Shown in pieces: positions 1-62,047 of a stretch of DNA of 64,000 bases. Position 1 is the first letter of the stretch. Each line of letters opens with the position of its first letter. A model generated the notes under the pieces. It had not been told where the DNA came from and ran no database searches. It saw only the letters and a list, made by a program, of their open reading frames with translations. A program made the position numbers and the translations under genes. Where the stretch lies: positions 45,966-109,965 of the IMG/VR virus record IMGVR_UViG_3300036985_006427; one strand, 5' to 3'. Source of the stretch: a virus.

Positions 1-3000
1 AGAAGCAGATATTAACTTCACACCTGAGAATACTATGTTTTGATCACAATCTTCAGTGCAGCAACCGCTATTGTTTGGATACCAAGCTGGTCCACACATT
101 CCGTATTCCCATTCTTCGAATGTTCTTGGAACAGGAATAGATTGATTAGAACCAGTTTTAATAACTAGCGTGGTCTTATAAGCAAGCGATGGCAATAGCT
201 GATCAAACTTTCTTATTCCATAGTAATTTCCGCTATATCCAAATCCACCTGCGAAATTAATTGCTCCAGAGTTTGTGTACGTATTCTTTGCTCTGAAGAT
301 GCCTCCATCATTGCATGTTTCTTGTCTCCACGTAATGCCGTCAGTAACCAAAGCTTTATCTATAGCTTTGCTTGGACTGTCTCCTGTGCATGATCCATAA
401 CCTATTAAATCTACACCTCTGATTTCATTGTTTGCAGGCAGAAATGCAACATGATTGTCTGCAAGTTCTATTGGAGATCCATAGCTACTGCTGTTCCATA
501 CAGCCAAAGAAGATCCAAAATTAGAGCTATAGTTTGCTGTTACAAAATTTAGAGATCCAGTCAACAAGGATTTAACCAAAGGATTATGCACATACAAAGG
601 CATAGATTGATTTATAATGTTTGGAGCGTTTATGTACAAAGGCATAGAATGTGAGCGTCGTGTGGACACTCCTTGATTATGACCAACAATGGTCAATCCG
701 ATCACTCCACTGGCACTGCCTTTTTGTCTGTTCAATTGCTGGTTATGTAAAAATAATGGCAATGAAGATAAAACGCCCACGTTTCCAGAAGAAGCGAATA
801 GATTAAGATTTAATACTGGACCTTCTGGTTTACCTGCCAACTCTATATTGACCAGAGTCAATGGCATACCAAAGAAACTACCAACAGATGTATTTGGGTT
901 TCCGTCATCTGATGTATCGAGCATACCTAAAACTTTAGGCATAGATAAAGACAAGCCGCTACTCAGCGATGTTGGTAATTCTCCGCTGATATTTAAATTA
1001 AAATAGCTGTATCCAGATTGAGGAGGTATAAATAGATTCAATGAATTAGATTCAGTGAAAGCTCCACTTACATTCAAGAAAAATCCAGATGGATGATCTA
1101 CTTCATTGAAGATATTATACGGTATAGGAACCTGAACTATCAACGGTAGTATTCCACTGTTTTCTCTTGGGAAACCGCCAATGTTAAGATTGATTTGGCT
1201 AGAAGCCGGGAAAGCTCCACTAACATTCATATTGAATGTGCCGGAAGAACCCAGTGCCAAAATATTAGCATCTACCATTCTCACATGAGAAGAGTGCATA
1301 TCTATTCTAGATTCAAATGCTGGTCCAGAAGGATAAACCAGATCGTATTGAACGAACATTTGATTTACATCGTCTTTGAAATATCTTTCTGAAAAATCTT
1401 TTAACCTTGGTTCTTTTGGGAATACAGCCCAAGGCTCTGTTTCATCGATTAGATCTTCATAATCAAATGTAGATTCTAACTTAACAAAACAGCTAGACGG
1501 TTCGATGTAATGAATTTTTCTGTTTACCAATCCCCAATTCGGCTCTTCTGTTGTCCAATATGGGTCTTGTTTCTTTGTGTACAAGCTAACTATAAACTTT
1601 GGACCAGATGGAGCGATTGTTTCACAAGATGGCCACTTTATTCCATCTCCAAATTTATGCTCAACAATAGTTTCTACAACGAGGGCTCGTTCAGAAAATT
1701 TATATCCAACTGGTATGCTCTTGGTTATTCTTCTGTTGACTGCGTAAAAATTATCCACAACGTCAGATAAATGAAATCTTAAAAAGTCATTTTCTATCTG
1801 AGTATGGTAAGCTACAGTGTTATCCACAGATGTTGGCAGCGTTATATTTGTCTTGTCTGAATATCCAATGCCATCGCTTTTCAAATTAAAGGAAATCAGA
1901 TCACGACCTGTGCGTTTTGTCAAGAAGTCAAACGAAGCGTCAAATTGGCAATATTTAAAGTCACCTACGTGCCAATCATTGTGCGTATCTTCGTCAACGT
2001 TTTGCCATAATGTAAATCTATCGTTGGTGTGTGATTCAGAAGGATTCCATAGTTTAACTCTTTGATTTGCTAAAAATACATCTGCACTAGTTTCTTTGAG
2101 TTGTAAATCTGGATCTGATTGGACTATTTTACAACCAGACGCAAGACCAAACTCACTAACAAACATATTCATGCCAACACCAGAACCAGTAGAAAACCCT
2201 ACTGTAACATCGCTGTCTCCGACATAGATATCAAACGGAGTAGAAGTAGCACGCAATGTATTCCAAGGATAAGCAAATTCGTTGTCTGTATATAATTTTA
2301 ATTCACTCAAATCCTTATCGTTATAAGTAAGAATAACTGCAAGTGGATATTGATATTCTGAATAATGAGCAGTGTCAGTTATTTTAATGATATTTCCAGT
2401 TGTGCTCCGAGCTAAACCGCAGAGATAACCGTTTTCGTAAGATATAGCAAACTCTAATTGTCTTCCTCCATGAGCATTGTGGAGACCCCATTTAGACACA
2501 AGTACTCCGCTATTAAATAAATTATAACCAACACCGCTTACATTTACGTCTGGTGTAAATTTAATATAAGAAACAAATCCATCGGAAGTATCTAAAGAAT
2601 GATTAAAATCAATATAAGAGTTTTGTCCGCTAATTCTTACTATGTTGTTAAAAGCATCTGAAATCTGACCGTATAGCTGATCACTTGTAAAATTAGCCGC
2701 TCCATTGCTTAAAGACGTCCAGTCGGTAGTTTGGTAAGAGGTACTATAACCCGGCAACTGATTGTTGAATATTGTAGGGTTAGTAAATCTCCAACCAATG
2801 TTTTTATATCTATATTGACCATTACCATAAGTTGTGTGTAAAACACCGCCATTTCCGGTGTTATTGTGTGGATTTATTGTATGACCATCATCATAATCAA
2901 AATCATAAAAACCAAAATTAAATGGAGAATCTAACAATGGATTATAGAATGAAAAACCAAACATGTTGGGATGGAAATCCCCTTGTGTTAGACCTTCCAT

Positions 3001-5604
3001 TCCTTTCCATCTTCGAGCGTAGTTGGTTCTTATTGTATTTGGTGAACCATAAGCATGGGGAATGTTTTGTATTCTAGATATTGGCCCATATCCAGATCCA
3101 GCGTTGAGTACGCTATCATAAGATTGCATACCAGAAGGATACAAAGCGGCTTCAGATCTTCCGTCTTGAGTTTTGCCAAACTTCTCTCCACCCTGAGTGT
3201 ACAGATTTATAGCATTAGCAGGAGCATATCTCACGCACAATTCGGCGTATCCAATAGCTGCACCGCTTGGCAATGGGAATATATCAAGGTATACATTTTC
3301 TAAGAAAGAGCTAAGACTATAATCTCTAGACAACCCCAGCTTTACTTTATCGTCAAGTATAACCAAAGGTATTTCATAAAGTTGAAAACCCGTACTGTTA
3401 ACAACTGGGTATTGAGACAATCTATAATGATCGTTTCCGCTTGATTCAAAGTAAGTGTCATTTTCAGACAATGAACCACCACCGATTGTTCTGTCTGAAT
3501 CACCTCGGTAAAATCCAGACAGCACAGGGTAGTTGCCAATGTTAGAAACGAAAGTGTCATTCAAGAAAATTCCAGATGGATCTTGAATAAATCCGCCAGA
3601 CGGAGGTGTTACAAACAATAAATCGTCGTTGCTGTACCCTACAACGTCCAAGATATAATCTCGGCTACCAACCTGTTTCTTAGCAAGAACTTTGAGTGTT
3701 AGAGATTCAACGTTATAAAAACAAATATCTTCTTGAATATTTTCAATACGTTTTTCTACACTGAATGCTCCAGTTGGTTTCCACCATGTTGTGTTTGTCC
3801 CTTGATCAAATGAGAAGTTAAAATCACCATTTGTAATTTCATCTACTTTGTTGTATCCGGTTTGAAACTTTAAAATCAACTTTCCAGAATTCGCTATGTT
3901 TCCACCGCTGGTTGATTGCAATTTGATGAATCTATCGGCATTTTTAACATTCAATATATTTATTAATTCTTTAGAGCCACAAACGTCTTGATTTGTTGCT
4001 CCTATTGGATATCCAGCAGTTATCGTTGTGTCATCTGCCCATACATTGTTGTTGACAGAAGGATAAATGGTTGTATCGTACGTATTGATAGCTATGAACG
4101 TTGGATTGATGCTTCTCTCTAGCCTTCGTCCAATTTCTCTCACAGGTATGCGGAATGGTAAATAATTCTCTAACCTTGGACCATACCCGCCACTGTTGCA
4201 AATTTCTACTGCTGATATTCTGAATCCTCTGGTAGGATTTATAAATCTTGTTTCATTGCTTGATAAAGGTTGTCCATCAATCGCCAAGTAGCTGTTGCCA
4301 TTGTTGCTAAGTATCTCTGGAATAATATAATTTTCTTCAAAACCATCATCGAAACCCTTGTTGAAGGGATCGTCTAATGAGACAGCTCTTACGCTAAAAG
4401 ACAATTGATATCCACTCACCTTATGCATATGAGGAATGGTTCGCTGCCAGTCGTATTTTTCATTTATAACATTTATTTGAGGAAGAGATGAATACGTAGT
4501 AAAGTTAGAGTATTCTTCTGTGGAATCGCCTCTCATCTGAATGTCATTGTATTTAACTATCAAATTTCCAGATGGGTCAGATAATTTAATGTTATATAAT
4601 GTATACAGGGGTGGAAGTTTAGACTCATAATTATACAGAGGTGTTGCTACTCTTATTCTAAAAGAAGAGCGTTCAGGTCTGACATACATATCAGTAAGTT
4701 CGCACTTGTACTGAAAAAGACCCTCTGTATGAAAAGTGTTTGGTTCAATGTAGGAGTTTTTGTCATCAGACAATAAGTTGGAATCTCCACGATCTTTCAA
4801 GACGCCTTCATAAATACCTTCATCTATATTGGACCATAAGTTTGTTGACTCTAAAGACGGTCCAGCAAAAGTTCCAAACCCACTGTCTATCGGCAGATCG
4901 TTTGATGGATACAGTTTGCCTTGACAGTAAAAGTCCCCAAAATCACCCGCTACCTTGTCTGTTATTGTGTTTATGATATTAGCTTCGCCGGTTATCACTT
5001 GTGACAATACATAGCTAGCCTTGATGCTGTTGAGAATATCTGACGAACCTATGATTTCTGACACAAGGCTTATGTAAGAACTAAAAATAGTTGATATGTC
5101 AGCTACACCAACAATACTTGCTCCTCCAACAGACTTAGCGGTCACCATGTTCGGAGCGGTGGCGTTAGCGTATCCAAAAACACTTGGATCTACAGCAGGA
5201 GGATTGCTCAGCAAGCCAAGGTTTGGACCGTCATAAAAAAATAAAACTGATCCATTTTCGAATTTTTGGATCACATTGGATGAAATCTTGACAAACTGAT
5301 TTGGAGAAACTTCATACGACAACTCTATATTCCAGCCTTCATCGATAAGATCTTTGTACTGACAGGTGTTTGCAGAACATCCAGATAGAGTGTATAATGG
5401 TCCACTTCCAGCCAATGAATTTTTATCGAAATAAACAATTATTTGCTGTGGAGGCGCTGCTATTTTAGAAAACGTATTGAATGAGGCTGATAAAGCAGCT
5501 TCATTGAGTGTCATTGTAGCAAGAAGCTCACCTCCTCCGGGACAGGTGGCTGAGGTTCCTTTTATACAACAACATTCCAAACTCTTCAAGAACGGTTCTG
5601 ACAT
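1..5604 (-). CDS. Giant tail/baseplate protein with LamG-like domain, partial
   Basis: The frame is open from ATG at 5604 to the window edge (1,868 codons, no stop), so the C-terminus is missing. ATG follows AGGT and lies 4 bases after the tape measure stop. The product is rich in Gly, Ser, Asn and beta-forming residues. The part encoded by about 2120-2700 reads as a LamG/concanavalin-like jelly roll: an FNHSLDTSDGF-type start, then LTYNDKDLSELKLYTDN. Near 950-1240 a motif of the form NVSG-x(5)-S-x(2)-LNL recurs three times, followed by MPLYIN/MPLYVH repeats. Position after the tape measure and the lectin-like fold suggest a tail tip or baseplate protein that binds surface glycans; this is inference. 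Confidence 0.8.
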   Translation of the reverse strand, partial: MSEPFLKSLECCCIKGTSATCPGGGELLATMTLNEAALSASFNTFSKIAAPPQQIIVYFDKNSLAGSGPLYTLSGCSANTCQYKDLIDEGWNIELSYEVSPNQFVKISSNVIQKFENGSVLFFYDGPNLGLLSNPPAVDPSVFGYANATAPNMVTAKSVGGASIVGVADISTIFSSYISLVSEIIGSSDILNSIKASYVLSQVITGEANIINTITDKVAGDFGDFYCQGKLYPSNDLPIDSGFGTFAGPSLESTNLWSNIDEGIYEGVLKDRGDSNLLSDDKNSYIEPNTFHTEGLFQYKCELTDMYVRPERSSFRIRVATPLYNYESKLPPLYTLYNIKLSDPSGNLIVKYNDIQMRGDSTEEYSNFTTYSSLPQINVINEKYDWQRTIPHMHKVSGYQLSFSVRAVSLDDPFNKGFDDGFEENYIIPEILSNNGNSYLAIDGQPLSSNETRFINPTRGFRISAVEICNSGGYGPRLENYLPFRIPVREIGRRLERSINPTFIAINTYDTTIYPSVNNNVWADDTTITAGYPIGATNQDVCGSKELINILNVKNADRFIKLQSTSGGNIANSGKLILKFQTGYNKVDEITNGDFNFSFDQGTNTTWWKPTGAFSVEKRIENIQEDICFYNVESLTLKVLAKKQVGSRDYILDVVGYSNDDLLFVTPPSGGFIQDPSGIFLNDTFVSNIGNYPVLSGFYRGDSDRTIGGGSLSENDTYFESSGNDHYRLSQYPVVNSTGFQLYEIPLVILDDKVKLGLSRDYSLSSFLENVYLDIFPLPSGAAIGYAELCVRYAPANAINLYTQGGEKFGKTQDGRSEAALYPSGMQSYDSVLNAGSGYGPISRIQNIPHAYGSPNTIRTNYARRWKGMEGLTQGDFHPNMFGFSFYNPLLDSPFNFGFYDFDYDDGHTINPHNNTGNGGVLHTTYGNGQYRYKNIGWRFTNPTIFNNQLPGYSTSYQTTDWTSLSNGAANFTSDQLYGQISDAFNNIVRISGQNSYIDFNHSLDTSDGFVSYIKFTPDVNVSGVGYNLFNSGVLVSKWGLHNAHGGRQLEFAISYENGYLCGLARSTTGNIIKITDTAHYSEYQYPLAVILTYNDKDLSELKLYTDNEFAYPWNTLRATSTPFDIYVGDSDVTVGFSTGSGVGMNMFVSEFGLASGCKIVQSDPDLQLKETSADVFLANQRVKLWNPSESHTNDRFTLWQNVDEDTHNDWHVGDFKYCQFDASFDFLTKRTGRDLISFNLKSDGIGYSDKTNITLPTSVDNTVAYHTQIENDFLRFHLSDVVDNFYAVNRRITKSIPVGYKFSERALVVETIVEHKFGDGIKWPSCETIAPSGPKFIVSLYTKKQDPYWTTEEPNWGLVNRKIHYIEPSSCFVKLESTFDYEDLIDETEPWAVFPKEPRLKDFSERYFKDDVNQMFVQYDLVYPSGPAFESRIDMHSSHVRMVDANILALGSSGTFNMNVSGAFPASSQINLNIGGFPRENSGILPLIVQVPIPYNIFNEVDHPSGFFLNVSGAFTESNSLNLFIPPQSGYSYFNLNISGELPTSLSSGLSLSMPKVLGMLDTSDDGNPNTSVGSFFGMPLTLVNIELAGKPEGPVLNLNLFASSGNVGVLSSLPLFLHNQQLNRQKGSASGVIGLTIVGHNQGVSTRRSHSMPLYINAPNIINQSMPLYVHNPLVKSLLTGSLNFVTANYSSNFGSSLAVWNSSSYGSPIELADNHVAFLPANNEIRGVDLIGYGSCTGDSPSKAIDKALVTDGITWRQETCNDGGIFRAKNTYTNSGAINFAGGFGYSGNYYGIRKFDQLLPSLAYKTTLVIKTGSNQSIPVPRTFEEWEYGMCGPAWYPNNSGCCTEDCDQNIVFSGVKLISAS

Positions 5605-5608
5605 TTTG

Positions 5609-8600
5609 TTAACCTAATACAGAGTTAGTTTTCTTTAAATCACCGGATGTGTTTGTCTTAAACTGCGATATTTGTTTTCCTACTTCGGTCAACAATTCTT
5701 GCTTTATGTCTTCTTTCATTGTTTCTAAGAAAGAAGCTCCATTAAAGTTAACATTGATATTCGTTGTATCTAAAGCTACTTGGAATTTACTTCCTATAAG
5801 CTTGTCTACGGTCGCAGCGAAATTATTGAATATAGTTGTTAACTGTGGTATCGCTGCACTGAATGCGCTGCCTACACCATCTACCGCTCCTCCAACGTTA
5901 TAATATCGAGCTTTACCTCCACCGCTCATTGCTCCGGGAGCACTCGCTCCACCACCTTTGTTCATAGCTTGTAGTATCTGTAAATTATTGCCACGTTGAA
6001 CTGACGATCTGTTGACCACAAATTCTCCCGGAGTCAACATAGCCGGAACGGTATCTGTTCCACGCGGAACGAACATTCCTCTGTTCGCATAAACTGGACC
6101 TCCTCTGTAAAGACCCGGAGGAGCAGGTGCCGCAGCAGGTGCTTGAGCTGGAGCAGCAGCAGCGCCACCTAAAGCTTGGTTTAATTGTTTGCCAATGTCT
6201 CCAATTGTAAGTTCTTGAGCATAAACAATTGCTTGTTTAGTATTAACTTCTGCTCTTTCAAATTCGGCTGCTTGTTGACCAAGTTGACCAAGTGTTGTCG
6301 CTAATTCTCTACCTTCAGCTTTCTTAGCTTGCTCTTCGGTTGTTGTGCCAGATAGTACACCCGTTGATTGAACTCCGAAACGTTGCAGCGTTAAATCTTC
6401 TGCTCTTCTTTTTTTATCATCCGATAAGCCTTGTCCCTCAAGGGTTTTGAAACCAGCTCCCAACGCTGAACCACTAAACAAACTAGTCAAAGCAGAGCTT
6501 CCGCTCGCTAGTGCAGCACCAGCTCCAGCAGCCGCTTGTTTTTCTAAAAACCCTTCTATGTCACCGCTTATGAGTGATTCGAGAGAATCCTTTTCTGCTT
6601 GATTTTTTCTTTGAATTAATTGAAGTTCTTCTTTTCTAGCTTCAATTTCTTGTTTTGTTTGTGAGATTAAATCTTGTTGTAACGCTTTCAGTCTTTCTCT
6701 AGTGTCTTCTTCCGCTCCAGCGCCACCAGAAAAAGCTCTTTCTCCAGACACTGCGCCAGCTCTAGCTCTTTCTTCTAGTTGTAAGAATTGATTGCTAATA
6801 TCAGCGGATACGCTTTGAATATCACCAGCGTTGCCAGTTTGAAGACCACGCACACCAACAGCCTCAGCGCCAACATTGAAGCTTGCAACTCTAGCTTGTT
6901 GTTTTTCGCCTGCTGTTAAAGCTTTACCACCAAACTCTTCAAAGATCTTGCCAGCCTCTAGTTGTAATTCTATAGCCCTTCTTTGTGCTGCTACATATTC
7001 TTGTTCAGATGCTATACGTTGTTGAATTCCCTTGATCAGTAATTGCTCTGCCTCTGAGCGTTTTTGAAGAACACCAAGAACTTCTTTGTTGAATGCATCA
7101 CTAGTTTTTTGCAATGCTTCTCTTAATGGACCAAAATTTCCAGCTTGAATTTCAGCAAGATCTTCTCCGTTAAACTTAGAGCTTGCTTCGTCAAGACCAG
7201 CATTAATTCTTGTTGCCACTTCAGGATCTAATCCGGCGGTCAATTCTTCACTGAGTATCCTTGATATTTCTTGTGGAGTTGCTCCCGCCGGTCCTTTTTC
7301 CGTTAATTTCTTTTGTATGTTTGCAAAAGAATCTGAATCTTTATTTAGTCTAGAAAAGGCAGTGTTGAAACCTTTAGCTGCACCACTCGCGTTACCTATG
7401 GCAGCCTCACTAGCTCCAGCTTCACGCAAAGTACCTTCTAGTGTTGCAATGGCTCCATCTAATTCCTTTGCTGACAAAGTGCCAGCAGCGCTAGTCAATG
7501 CGGTCTGTAAGATATCTAATGAATCACCAAACTTATCTCCAACCTGATCTATAGTTAATAATTTCGATAATTTTTTGTTTGTAGCATCCAATGAATCAGA
7601 AAGTGTTCCAAGGCCAAAGTTAGTAGCTTTGATAAGAGCTAATTGTCTTATGGCTTGCTCTTTAGCGGCTTTCAAAGACTGTTTACCAGCTTCTTCTCTT
7701 TGTTTTTCAAATCCTCTAATTTTAATTTCTTGTTGTTCAAGATCTGAAAATACTCTGGCTCCCGGTCCTTGTGATTGCTGCACATTTGCGTCAATTCTAG
7801 CTTGCTCTGCTGGAGAAAATTGTGAAGTAGTAGCAGCTTTAAATGCTGAATTATCGGTAACAGTCCTTTCAGCTTCGTCCGCCGTTGCTCCTCTCATGAT
7901 CTGATCCGCAAGAACATTACCAAACATTGGTAATTGTTCCATAAATGCAGTAGTAGCTTTTTCTTGGTCTGGAATTTGTTCTTTCAAAGCTTCGGCTCTT
8001 TTTTTGTCGTTAGACTTATCCAATTGCCCCTGAAGCATACTGCCAACCAAAGCACCCAAAGGACCAGCAATAGCTAATCCAGCCATAGTTGAGGCTCCTT
8101 CCAGAGCCCAGAATGAATTATTAACATCTTCAATTCTTGAATTGCTCAAAGCTATGGATTGTGCAAGAACACCAAACTCATTGTTTAAATTACCAGTTAA
8201 ATTGCCTTTCGTAAATTCATCGGTTAAAGTGCTAGATCCAGACTCTACACGTTGCATAGCCATAGCGACATCGTTGGCGTTTTTAGAAGCTTCGTTTTCC
8301 TGTTTCTTTCTGGCGGCAGCTAATCTAGCTTCTTGTTTAACTGTATCTGTACTTGGACCTAATCCAAAGAATGCTAAAGTTTTTCTAAAGGCATTTAATG
8401 GTCCTTCTAACAGCCCAAACGCATCAGCTAATTTAAGACCAATCGCAACAATACCAATCGTAACACCAACTAGCACACCTAATGGTCCACTGACAGCAAT
8501 TAAAACACCAGCTAAAATTCCAAGAGCTATAGTTACTTTATTTACTATGTTAGAATTTGCAGACGCTACAGCCGTTTCTCCAGCTTTTGCGACATTGCCT

Positions 8601-58784: not shown

Positions 58785-58857
58785 GGGCTGGTAGCTTAAC
58801 GGTCAAAGCAGCGAACTCATAATTCGTTGATTGCGAGTTCGAATCTCGCCCGGCCCA
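58785..58857 (+). tRNA. tRNA-Met (CAT)
   Basis: 73 bases. Acceptor GGGCTGG / CCGGCCC, D arm GCTTAACGGTCAAAGC, anticodon stem GCGAA / TTCGT with loop CTCATAA (anticodon CAT), T arm GCGAG-TTCGAAT-CTCGC, discriminator A. CCA is not encoded. It could be elongator Met or a lysidine-type Ile tRNA. Confidence 0.92.
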
Positions 58858-59507: not shown

Positions 59508-59535
59508 TTGACAATCAAAATGAGTCTGCTATAAT
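59508..59535 (+). promoter_or_regulatory. Promoter of tRNA-Glu
   Basis: TTGACA, 16 bases, TATAAT (-10 at 59530-59535). Confidence 0.82.
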
Positions 59536-59545
59536 CTGTGAACAA

Positions 59546-59617
59546 GGCCCCATAGTTGTACGGTTATGACGCCGCACTTTCACTGCGGAGGAGTGGGATC
59601 GTCCCCCACTGGGGTCA
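59546..59617 (+). tRNA. tRNA-Glu (TTC) with atypical T loop
   Basis: 72 bases. Acceptor GGCCCCA / TGGGGTC, D arm GTTGTACGGTTATGAC, anticodon stem CCGCA / TGCGG with loop CTTTCAC (anticodon TTC). T stem GTGGG / CCCAC, loop ATCGTCC instead of TTCRANY, so the usual U54 and A58 are absent. Discriminator A, CCA not encoded. Confidence 0.82.
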
Positions 59618-59752: not shown

Positions 59753-59766
59753 CTTTAAAAAAGCCA

Positions 59767-59880
59767 GCCTATTACATTGGTTCGAATCCAATACGTTAGA
59801 ACGATATATCGTTCGTCGCAAGATGACCGGATGATTCCGGTTGGGCGTTCGTCTAGTGGTCAGGACGATAGGCATTTTTT
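59767..59880 (+). other. Inverted-order tRNA halves (permuted tRNA candidate)
   Basis: A 3' half comes first: GCCTAT, TAC, T arm ATTGG-TTCGAAT-CCAAT, acceptor strand ACGTTAG and A (59767-59800). After 41 bases with two hairpins comes a 5' half: TGGGCGT, TC, D arm GTCTAGTGGTCAGGAC, G, ATAGGC (59842-59873). ATAGGC/GCCTAT is a perfect 6-bp anticodon stem; the acceptor pairs 6 of 7 with three wobbles. The 5' half then runs straight into tract hairpin 6. Two decayed tRNAs remain an alternative. Confidence 0.3.
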
Positions 59881-59881
59881 T

Positions 59882-59905
59882 AAAAAAAAGGGGGGGGCCT
59901 TTTTT
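59882..59905 (+). terminator. Tract hairpin 6 (A8-G8-C2-T6)
   Basis: Weaker stem than the others (only two C). It ends the tRNA-Glu unit. Confidence 0.7.
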
Positions 59906-59969
59906 ATTTCGAGTTATTTAACGTTAACGATTCACGATAAAAATAAATAAAAAATTCCCTGACCAGCTC

Positions 59970-61258: not shown

Positions 61259-61300
61259 TCACATGTGGAGTTTGTGTTCATTCAACCAATCGAGAGAATT

Positions 61301-62047
61301 ATGAAATATTCACCTGCCAACGTCAAAATCAAAGCACTTGCCAACGTTCCCGCAATTGCGAAGTATCTTCCCAAAGGCAAGAAAGTTTACAGTTTTGATA
61401 TTCTTTCTGGACATTCTTGTCCGTTTGCGAATGAGTGCCTTTCCAAGGTGGTCGAGACTCCATCGGGTTTCCGCATTCAAGACGGTCCAAACACAGAATT
61501 CCGTTGTTTTTCTGCTTCTCAGGAAGTCATTTTCACAAATGTGAGAAAGCTACGTTCTTCGAATTTTTCAGAATTGAAGGGATTGACATCGGCGGAAATG
61601 GCCGCTAAGCTTTCCGAAGCCATGCCAAAAAATCTTGGCGTTTGTCGCGTTCACGTTGCCGGTGACTTTTTCAACCAGAATTATTTCAACGCATGGTTGA
61701 CTGTTGCTGTTGCGAATCCTGACAAATTGTTTTACGCATACACGAAAAGTCTACCATATTGGGTTAATATGATCGGTATGATTCCAGAGAATTTTGTGCT
61801 GACCGCTTCTCGCGGCGGACGAAAAGACGATATGATCGAGACTTACAATCTTCGCTCTGTCAAGGTGGTTTTTCATCCATCCGAAACAATTCTCGAAATC
61901 GACCATACGGACGAACACGCTGCAAACCCTGACACTCGAAATCAGGATTTTGCCCTTTTGATCCACGGAGTTCAACCGAAGGGTTCCGCAGCAGGAAACG
62001 CGGTAAAAATCCTAAAATCCGAAAATGTCCAGTTTTCCTATTCTTGA
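61301..62047 (+). CDS. Conserved phage protein with Cys motif
   Basis: 248 residues from MKYSPANVKIKALANVPAIA. Motifs: LSGHSCPFANECLSKV, then DGPNTEFRCFSASQEV, RVHVAGDFFNQNYFNAW, FYAYTKSLPYW, LTASRGGRKDD and LLIHGVQPKGS. I recall a widespread uncharacterised phage family of this shape; its three Cys suggest a metal site. A leaderless GTG start at 61265 would add 12 residues and fits the local promoter rule; ATG at 61301 has a GAGAG leader. Confidence 0.75.
   Translation: MKYSPANVKIKALANVPAIAKYLPKGKKVYSFDILSGHSCPFANECLSKVVETPSGFRIQDGPNTEFRCFSASQEVIFTNVRKLRSSNFSELKGLTSAEMAAKLSEAMPKNLGVCRVHVAGDFFNQNYFNAWLTVAVANPDKLFYAYTKSLPYWVNMIGMIPENFVLTASRGGRKDDMIETYNLRSVKVVFHPSETILEIDHTDEHAANPDTRNQDFALLIHGVQPKGSAAGNAVKILKSENVQFSYS

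What the first reader, a model, noticed from the sequence alone, without database searches (positions are those of the whole stretch)
59767..59880. Circularly permuted tRNA candidate in a phage
A 3' tRNA half (canonical T arm) lies upstream of a 5' half (canonical D arm). The two anticodon-stem strands are perfectly complementary over 6 bp and lie at the right distance from the T and D arms. The acceptor strands pair 6 of 7 with wobbles. Permuted tRNA genes are known in algae and archaea; I know of none established in a phage.
Basis: partly seen in the sequence, partly recalled or inferred. Interest (0 to 1): 0.72.

Follow-up and report, generated by a model that had tools for sequence, protein, structure and literature searches.

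The report
Phage RNA mimicking a permuted tRNA
A large phage carries a small RNA element that folds like the elbow of a tRNA with its halves in swapped order, but relatives show that it cannot become a working tRNA, so it is most likely a tRNA look-alike resembling the bacterial Y RNAs, not a new kind of tRNA gene.

Summary
At 59767-59873 a canonical T arm precedes a canonical D arm, and the outer strands pair (GCCTAT/ATAGGC, 6 bp). Shuffled sequence gives none (0 in 60 x 64 kb).

It is probably not a tRNA gene. The close relative L008 keeps both halves almost unchanged (65 of 66 conserved-block bases) but replaces the window's 56-nt joining segment by 11 nt, ACAC-TTC-GTGT: a closed 4-bp hairpin with no free acceptor end. 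A distant relative (L276/G060), with the same gene order tRNA-Glu, module, GP88 gene, has a module with new base pairs in the closing and T stems, a matching tertiary-pair change (G15-C48 to A15-U48), and no acceptor stem.

This topology (T arm, closed acceptor, D arm, exit through the 'anticodon' stem) is that of bacterial Y RNAs (YrlA), which superpose on tRNA as circular permutations. Similar modules occur in other phage contigs, several next to Ro60/Rsr genes. G060 is the only one of 50 relatives with such a module and the only one with Rsr.

Rfam's YrlA model does not match the window or L008. No Ro-binding stem was recognised, and no Rsr was found in the two fragments. I call it a Y-RNA-like tRNA mimic, a variant, not a proven family member.

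The parts
59508..59535 (+). sigma-70-type promoter (TTGACA-16-TATAAT, 12 of 12, TG before the second hexamer) ahead of tRNA-Glu and the module
   Evidence: L008 has an equally perfect one at 7896-7923 ahead of the same unit
59546..59617 (+). tRNA-Glu (UUC), probably co-transcribed with the module
59755..59763 (+). 5' strand of a predicted basal helix (UUAAAAAAG) pairing with 59875-59883
   Evidence: z = -2.9 to -3.6; only weakly kept in L008, so uncertain
59767..59772 (+). 3' strand of the 'anticodon-like' closing stem (GCCTAT)
   Evidence: preceded by conserved AAGCCA
59776..59792 (+). T arm ATTGG-TTCGAAT-CCAAT
   Evidence: identical in L008
59793..59848 (+). acceptor-like segment: ACGTT/GGCGT 5 bp, enclosing two perfect hairpins (59799-59814 and 59826-59841); replaced by ACAC-TTC-GTGT in L008 and by 8 unpaired nt in L276
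59849..59866 (+). positions 8-9 (TC) and D arm GTCT-AGTGGTCA-GGAC
   Evidence: identical in L008
59868..59873 (+). 5' strand of the 'anticodon-like' closing stem (ATAGGC; ATAGGT in L008 keeps the pair as G-U)
59874..59910 (+). terminator-like block (T run, A run, G run, CC, T run), one of about eight such blocks in the window

Best explanation
The element is the tRNA-like module of a small phage noncoding RNA with the topology of bacterial Y RNAs (YrlA): exit stem in place of the anticodon stem, T arm, closed or dispensable acceptor, D arm, back into the exit stem. SHOWN: halves and pairing; conservation of the halves with the acceptor closed (L008) or lost (L276); covariation of the closing stem, T stem and position 15-48 between window/L008 and L276; shared gene order; Ro60/Rsr in G060 and beside several other phage modules. 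INFERRED: it is transcribed with tRNA-Glu from the promoter at 59508 to the terminator at about 59905, folds into an unspliced tRNA-like elbow (D loop-T loop), and acts by tRNA mimicry. Most likely it docks an RNA-metabolism protein (an Rsr/PNPase-type particle, if the missing part of the genome or the host supplies Rsr). Less likely it is a decoy for tRNA-binding or tRNA-cleaving enzymes. It is not joined into a tRNA.
For: L008 retains 34/34 and 31/32 bases of the two blocks, although the neighbouring tRNA-Glu is 78% and the GP88 gene 81% identical. Its joining segment is ACAC-TTC-GTGT, so no acceptor end can be made. L276 4198-4251 is an independent module in the same order (tRNA-Glu, module, GP88 gene), with GCGGG/CCCGC in place of CCTAT/ATAGG, a recoded T stem, A15-U48 for G15-C48, and no acceptor stem. 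In 1.37 Mb of related loci only these three non-tRNA modules have canonical arms and at least 5 closing pairs. The RF02553 consensus shows the same architecture, including a 3-nt 5' bulge (CUA; here CCA) before the closing stem. Literature: YrlA has D, T and acceptor arms plus a basal stem (PMC8394870), and Y RNA superposes on tRNA as a circular permutation (PMC11472068). T arm-closed hairpin-D arm modules occur in about a dozen other viral contigs. YrlA-like hits of 29-49 bits occur in seven of the eight of them that were scanned, and six of 15 module-bearing contigs have Rsr-type proteins, E 3e-29 or better. Of 50 relatives, G060 alone has the module and alone has a TROVE/vWA_Ro60 protein.
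Against: RF02553 does not match the window or L008 even at E up to 10. No Ro-binding basal stem was recognised; in the window the basal helix is an A/U run that merges with the terminator. No Rsr is found in the 110-kb and 30-kb fragments. Only three syntenic modules are known, two of them nearly identical. In G060 the module and Rsr are about 30 kb apart or more. Transcription is not shown.
Confidence: 0.66

Rival explanations
1. A true circularly permuted tRNA gene: the transcript is circularised at the anticodon loop and opened at the acceptor to give a tRNA.
For: In the window the acceptor strands pair 6 of 7 and are separated by a spacer, and all tertiary core positions are tRNA-like.
Against: L008 has a closed 4-bp acceptor and L276 none. 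The window acceptor has a 2:71 G-A mismatch, U1-G72 and three wobbles. No anticodon is defined: position 33 would be A, and the closing stem extends through 32-38. No RNA ligase was noticed in the 110-kb fragment (inspection of ORFs only).
Confidence: 0.07
2. Decayed remnant: the junction of a tandem tRNA pair whose outer halves were lost, with no present function.
For: Tandem tRNAs naturally give T arm-acceptor-spacer-D arm. The D half resembles tRNA-Glu D arms of relatives. This may be the evolutionary origin of all such modules.
Against: The halves are far better conserved than the neighbouring tRNA-Glu and coding gene, and the closing stem is kept in L008 and recoded in L276.
Confidence: 0.13
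3. A stand-alone tRNA mimic without Rsr: a decoy or docking site for tRNA-binding enzymes (modification enzymes, RNase P, anticodon nucleases), or a 3' structural cap on the tRNA-Glu transcript. (This overlaps with the best explanation: same RNA, different partner.)
For: No recognisable Ro-binding stem and no Rsr in the fragments. The module sits between tRNA-Glu and a terminator. A decoy role against an anticodon nuclease has been proposed for YrlA's tRNA-like domain (PMC7790460).
Against: Rsr and module co-occur in G060 and in several other phages.
Confidence: 0.22
4. Part of a permuted tmRNA gene.
For: Permuted tmRNA has the same T-half-before-5'-half order, and one occurs in a phage contig fetched here (L054, RF04321).
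Against: RF04321 does not match here. A canonical D arm and a short closing stem, with no room for a tag reading frame before the terminator.
Confidence: 0.02

Closest known systems
Bacterial Y RNA YrlA (Rfam RF02553; Salmonella YrlA structure PDB 6CU1)
   Same: Order exit stem, T arm, closed acceptor, D arm, exit stem; a 3-nt bulge on the 5' side before the closing stem; canonical T/D loop contacts; related modules next to Rsr in phages.
   Different: No Rfam match for window or L008; no recognised Ro-binding stem 1; Rsr not found in the window's fragment; D arm of Glu type (GUCUAGUGGU) instead of GCUC-type; acceptor very variable (56, 11, 8 nt).
Permuted tRNA genes of red/green algae and archaea (from memory)
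   Same: 3' half upstream of 5' half, spacer between the acceptor strands.
   Different: No splice motif or anticodon established; relatives have no usable acceptor.
Permuted tmRNA (Rfam RF04321)
   Same: T half precedes 5' half with an intervening segment at the acceptor.
   Different: Has a full D arm and no tag-coding region; no model match.
Putative Y RNAs with an Rsr-like protein in Listeria phage CKA15 (PMC12282133)
   Same: Phage-encoded Ro60/Y RNA-type system proposed for a lytic phage.
   Different: There Rsr is encoded within 2 kb of the RNAs; no tRNA-like sequence is described in the passages read.

Membership tests
Bacterial Y RNA (YrlA) | tRNA-like module with order T arm, closed acceptor, D arm, opening at the anticodon side | tested here: met
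   (acceptor closed in L008; with a 56-nt joining segment in the window; reduced to 8 nt in L276)
Bacterial Y RNA (YrlA) | Match to the Rfam covariance model RF02553 | tested here: not met
   no match for window or L008 up to E = 10; tandem tRNAs score up to 44 bits, so low scores mean little
Bacterial Y RNA (YrlA) | Basal stem with the Ro/Rsr-binding site | tested here: inconclusive
   a weak A/U basal helix in the window; no Ro-site-like strands recognised by eye
Bacterial Y RNA (YrlA) | Encoded with an Rsr (TROVE + vWA) protein | tested here: inconclusive
   absent from fragments G000 and G001; present in syntenic relative G060
Bacterial Y RNA (YrlA) | Binding to Rsr and PNPase | not testable with these tools
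   biochemistry needed
Circularly permuted tRNA gene | Acceptor strands that can give a 7-bp acceptor with a free 3' end | tested here: not met
   L008 4-bp closed hairpin, L276 none, window 6 of 7 with a mismatch and three wobbles
Circularly permuted tRNA gene | Defined anticodon loop with U33 after joining | tested here: inconclusive
   position 33 is A and 32-38 pair if the stem is read at canonical spacing; the joint is unknown
Circularly permuted tRNA gene | RNA joining the halves | not testable with these tools
   needs RNA-seq
Permuted tmRNA | Match to RF04321 / tag-coding region | tested here: not met

The most novel reading that the evidence does not exclude
A phage tRNA mimic that has kept the permuted tRNA elbow but shed the Rsr-binding stem and the acceptor, and works alone (for example as a decoy for tRNA-binding or tRNA-cleaving enzymes): a new, Rsr-independent class of tRNA-like RNA.
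Probability: 0.2. Interest if true: 0.62.

Novelty: new variant of a known kind. Interest (0 to 1): 0.4.

Why it matters
It explains why a T half before a D half in a phage need not be a permuted tRNA, and it points to a set of tRNA-like RNAs in large phages that tRNA finders and the Rfam YrlA model miss. Several sit beside Ro60/Rsr genes, so the role of Ro60-Y RNA particles in phage infection becomes testable. The tandem-tRNA-junction look of these modules (some with CCA left in the acceptor loop) suggests how Y RNAs may arise from tRNA arrays.

Tried and rejected
Phage records similar to the region by blastn: none. Weak matches with short pieces were generic T/D arms. The 14-mer scan GCCTATTACATTGG gave chance hits; the 19-nt match in L168 looks like chance, since no D arm follows. 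YrlA hits of 16-44 bits in related phages looked promising, but the ones read proved to be tandem tRNA pairs. A covariance model was not built because MAFFT misplaced the closing stem. Pair counts were made by script on named positions instead. A parental collinear tRNA for the halves was sought among 109 tRNAs of relatives: only generic T-arm and Glu D-arm similarity. Other copies of the two acceptor hairpins in the genome: none.

Full report
Observation. The window is G000:C1:45966-109965 of a 109,965-base IMG/VR virus record, a linear fragment. At 59767-59873 a canonical T arm precedes a canonical D arm, and the outer strands GCCTAT and ATAGGC pair over 6 bp. The acceptor-like strands pair 6 of 7, with three wobbles and a mismatch at 2:71. 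ARAGORN and Rfam find only tRNA-Met 58785-58857 and tRNA-Glu 59546-59617. In 60 first-order shuffles of the window, both strands, T-to-D adjacency occurred 3 times and never with a closing stem of 5 bp.

Relatives. The gene downstream (61265-62047, Pfam GP88, PHROG 1392) was used to find related phage contigs. The closest, L008 (88% protein identity), has the module at 8143-8204. The 3' block is identical over 34 bases and the 5' block over 31 of 32, while tRNA-Glu is 78% and the GP88 gene 81% identical at the DNA level. The only change in the closing stem (C to U) keeps a G-U pair. The window's 56-nt joining segment is replaced by ACAC-TTC-GTGT, a closed hairpin. Both genomes have a perfect sigma-70 promoter ahead of tRNA-Glu. 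In the window a terminator-like block of a type repeated about eight times follows the module directly.

A scan of 1.37 Mb of related loci found a third module, in L276 4198-4251 (contig G060, 172.9 kb): GCGGG AAAUU CGGGG UUCGACU CCCCG, 8 nt, UC GUCU AAUGGCCA GGAC A CCCGC. It overlaps no tRNA and lies in the same order: tRNA-Glu 3210, module 4198, GP88 homologue 10001. Compared with the window, four of five closing pairs and three of five T-stem pairs are changed on both sides, and the 15-48 pair changes from G-C to A-U; 8-14 and 54-58 are kept. It has no acceptor stem. The closing-stem match in L276 on its own is only moderately beyond chance; gene order and the canonical loops add the weight. 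A pattern search of 50 related records found this module only in G060, with zero control hits.

What it is. A molecule with this order, whose ends leave through the anticodon side and whose acceptor is closed, is a tRNA mimic and not a tRNA precursor. Bacterial Y RNAs have exactly this topology. The RF02553 consensus reads basal stem, CUA bulge, closing stem, T arm, closed acceptor, UA, D arm, closing stem. Published work describes YrlA as D, T and acceptor arms on a basal stem that binds Rsr, with the tRNA-like part binding PNPase (PMC8394870), and as a circular permutation of tRNA in three dimensions (PMC11472068). The window folds in the same way, with a CCA bulge between basal and closing stems.

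Link to Ro60/Rsr. A pattern scan of viral contigs, filtered against tRNA genes, gave about a dozen contigs besides L008 with T arm, short closed hairpin and D arm. RF02553-like hits of 29-49 bits occur in seven of the eight such contigs scanned. TROVE proteins were found in four of 13. With a profile of phage Rsr proteins, six of 15 gave E-values of 3e-29 or better. Of 50 relatives of the window's phage only G060 has a TROVE/vWA_Ro60 protein, and it is also the only one with the module.

Limits. RF02553 matches neither window nor L008. No Ro-binding strands were recognised. Rsr was not found in G000 or G001, which are fragments. Hence membership in YrlA is not claimed; the statement is that it has the Y RNA topology and probably works by the same kind of mimicry. 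YrlA scores below about 45 bits are unreliable in phages, because tandem tRNAs reach 44 bits.

Origin. The junction of two tandem tRNA genes is itself T arm, 3' acceptor, (CCA), spacer, 5' acceptor, D arm. Some of the phage modules keep N-CCA in the acceptor loop (L316, L029, L027, Sinorhizobium phage Phosso). This suggests that such RNAs arise from tandem tRNA repeats that lose their outer halves. This is inference.

Verdict. The permuted-tRNA-gene reading is unlikely (about 7%). A Y-RNA-like tRNA mimic is best supported (about 66%); within it, whether the RNA works with Rsr or alone is open.

Noticed in passing
L316 8142-8195 (-), L317 3897-3956 (-), Sinorhizobium phage Phosso (L331 about 2985-3075): Permuted tRNA-like modules with an anticodon-like hairpin upstream of the T arm (loops such as CAUCCAA, CUUCUAA); in L316 and Phosso a 7-bp acceptor is followed by N-CCA and a short spacer before the 5' half. 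Unannotated in Phosso. L316's contig encodes an Rsr-type protein.
   Followed up: partly
L021, L027, L031, L034, L045, L046, L067: Pairs of tRNA-like RNAs in the same locus: one YrlA-like (29-49 bits, below Rfam's cut-off), one with a Glu-type D arm and an anticodon-like hairpin with loops such as CUUCCAA and CUGUUAA; L034, L045, L046 and L067 lie within about 1 kb of TROVE genes.
   Followed up: partly
L054 2085-2332 (-): Permuted tmRNA (RF04321, 63 bits) in a 194-kb phage contig.
   Followed up: no
L058 9117-9601: GOLLD RNA (RF02032) in the same phage contig as a closed-acceptor tRNA-like module.
   Followed up: no
L008 9734-9792: Type-P5 twister ribozyme just upstream of the GP88 gene; not found in the window by Rfam.
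   Followed up: no
window 52993, 55312, 56381, 57428, 58647, 59887, 61086, 62659: About eight copies of a block T7-A7-G6-7-CC(C)-T6, both strands, placed like bidirectional terminators between small genes; expected 0.06 by chance.
   Followed up: no
window 59793-59848: Insert in the acceptor region made of two perfect hairpins (GAACGATATATCGTTC, ACCGGATGATTCCGGT), with no second copy in the genome.
   Followed up: partly
L008 8075-8135: Long hairpin between tRNA-Glu and the module that contains GATAGGT/ACCTATC, the same letters as the module's closing stem; possible competing pairing.
   Followed up: no
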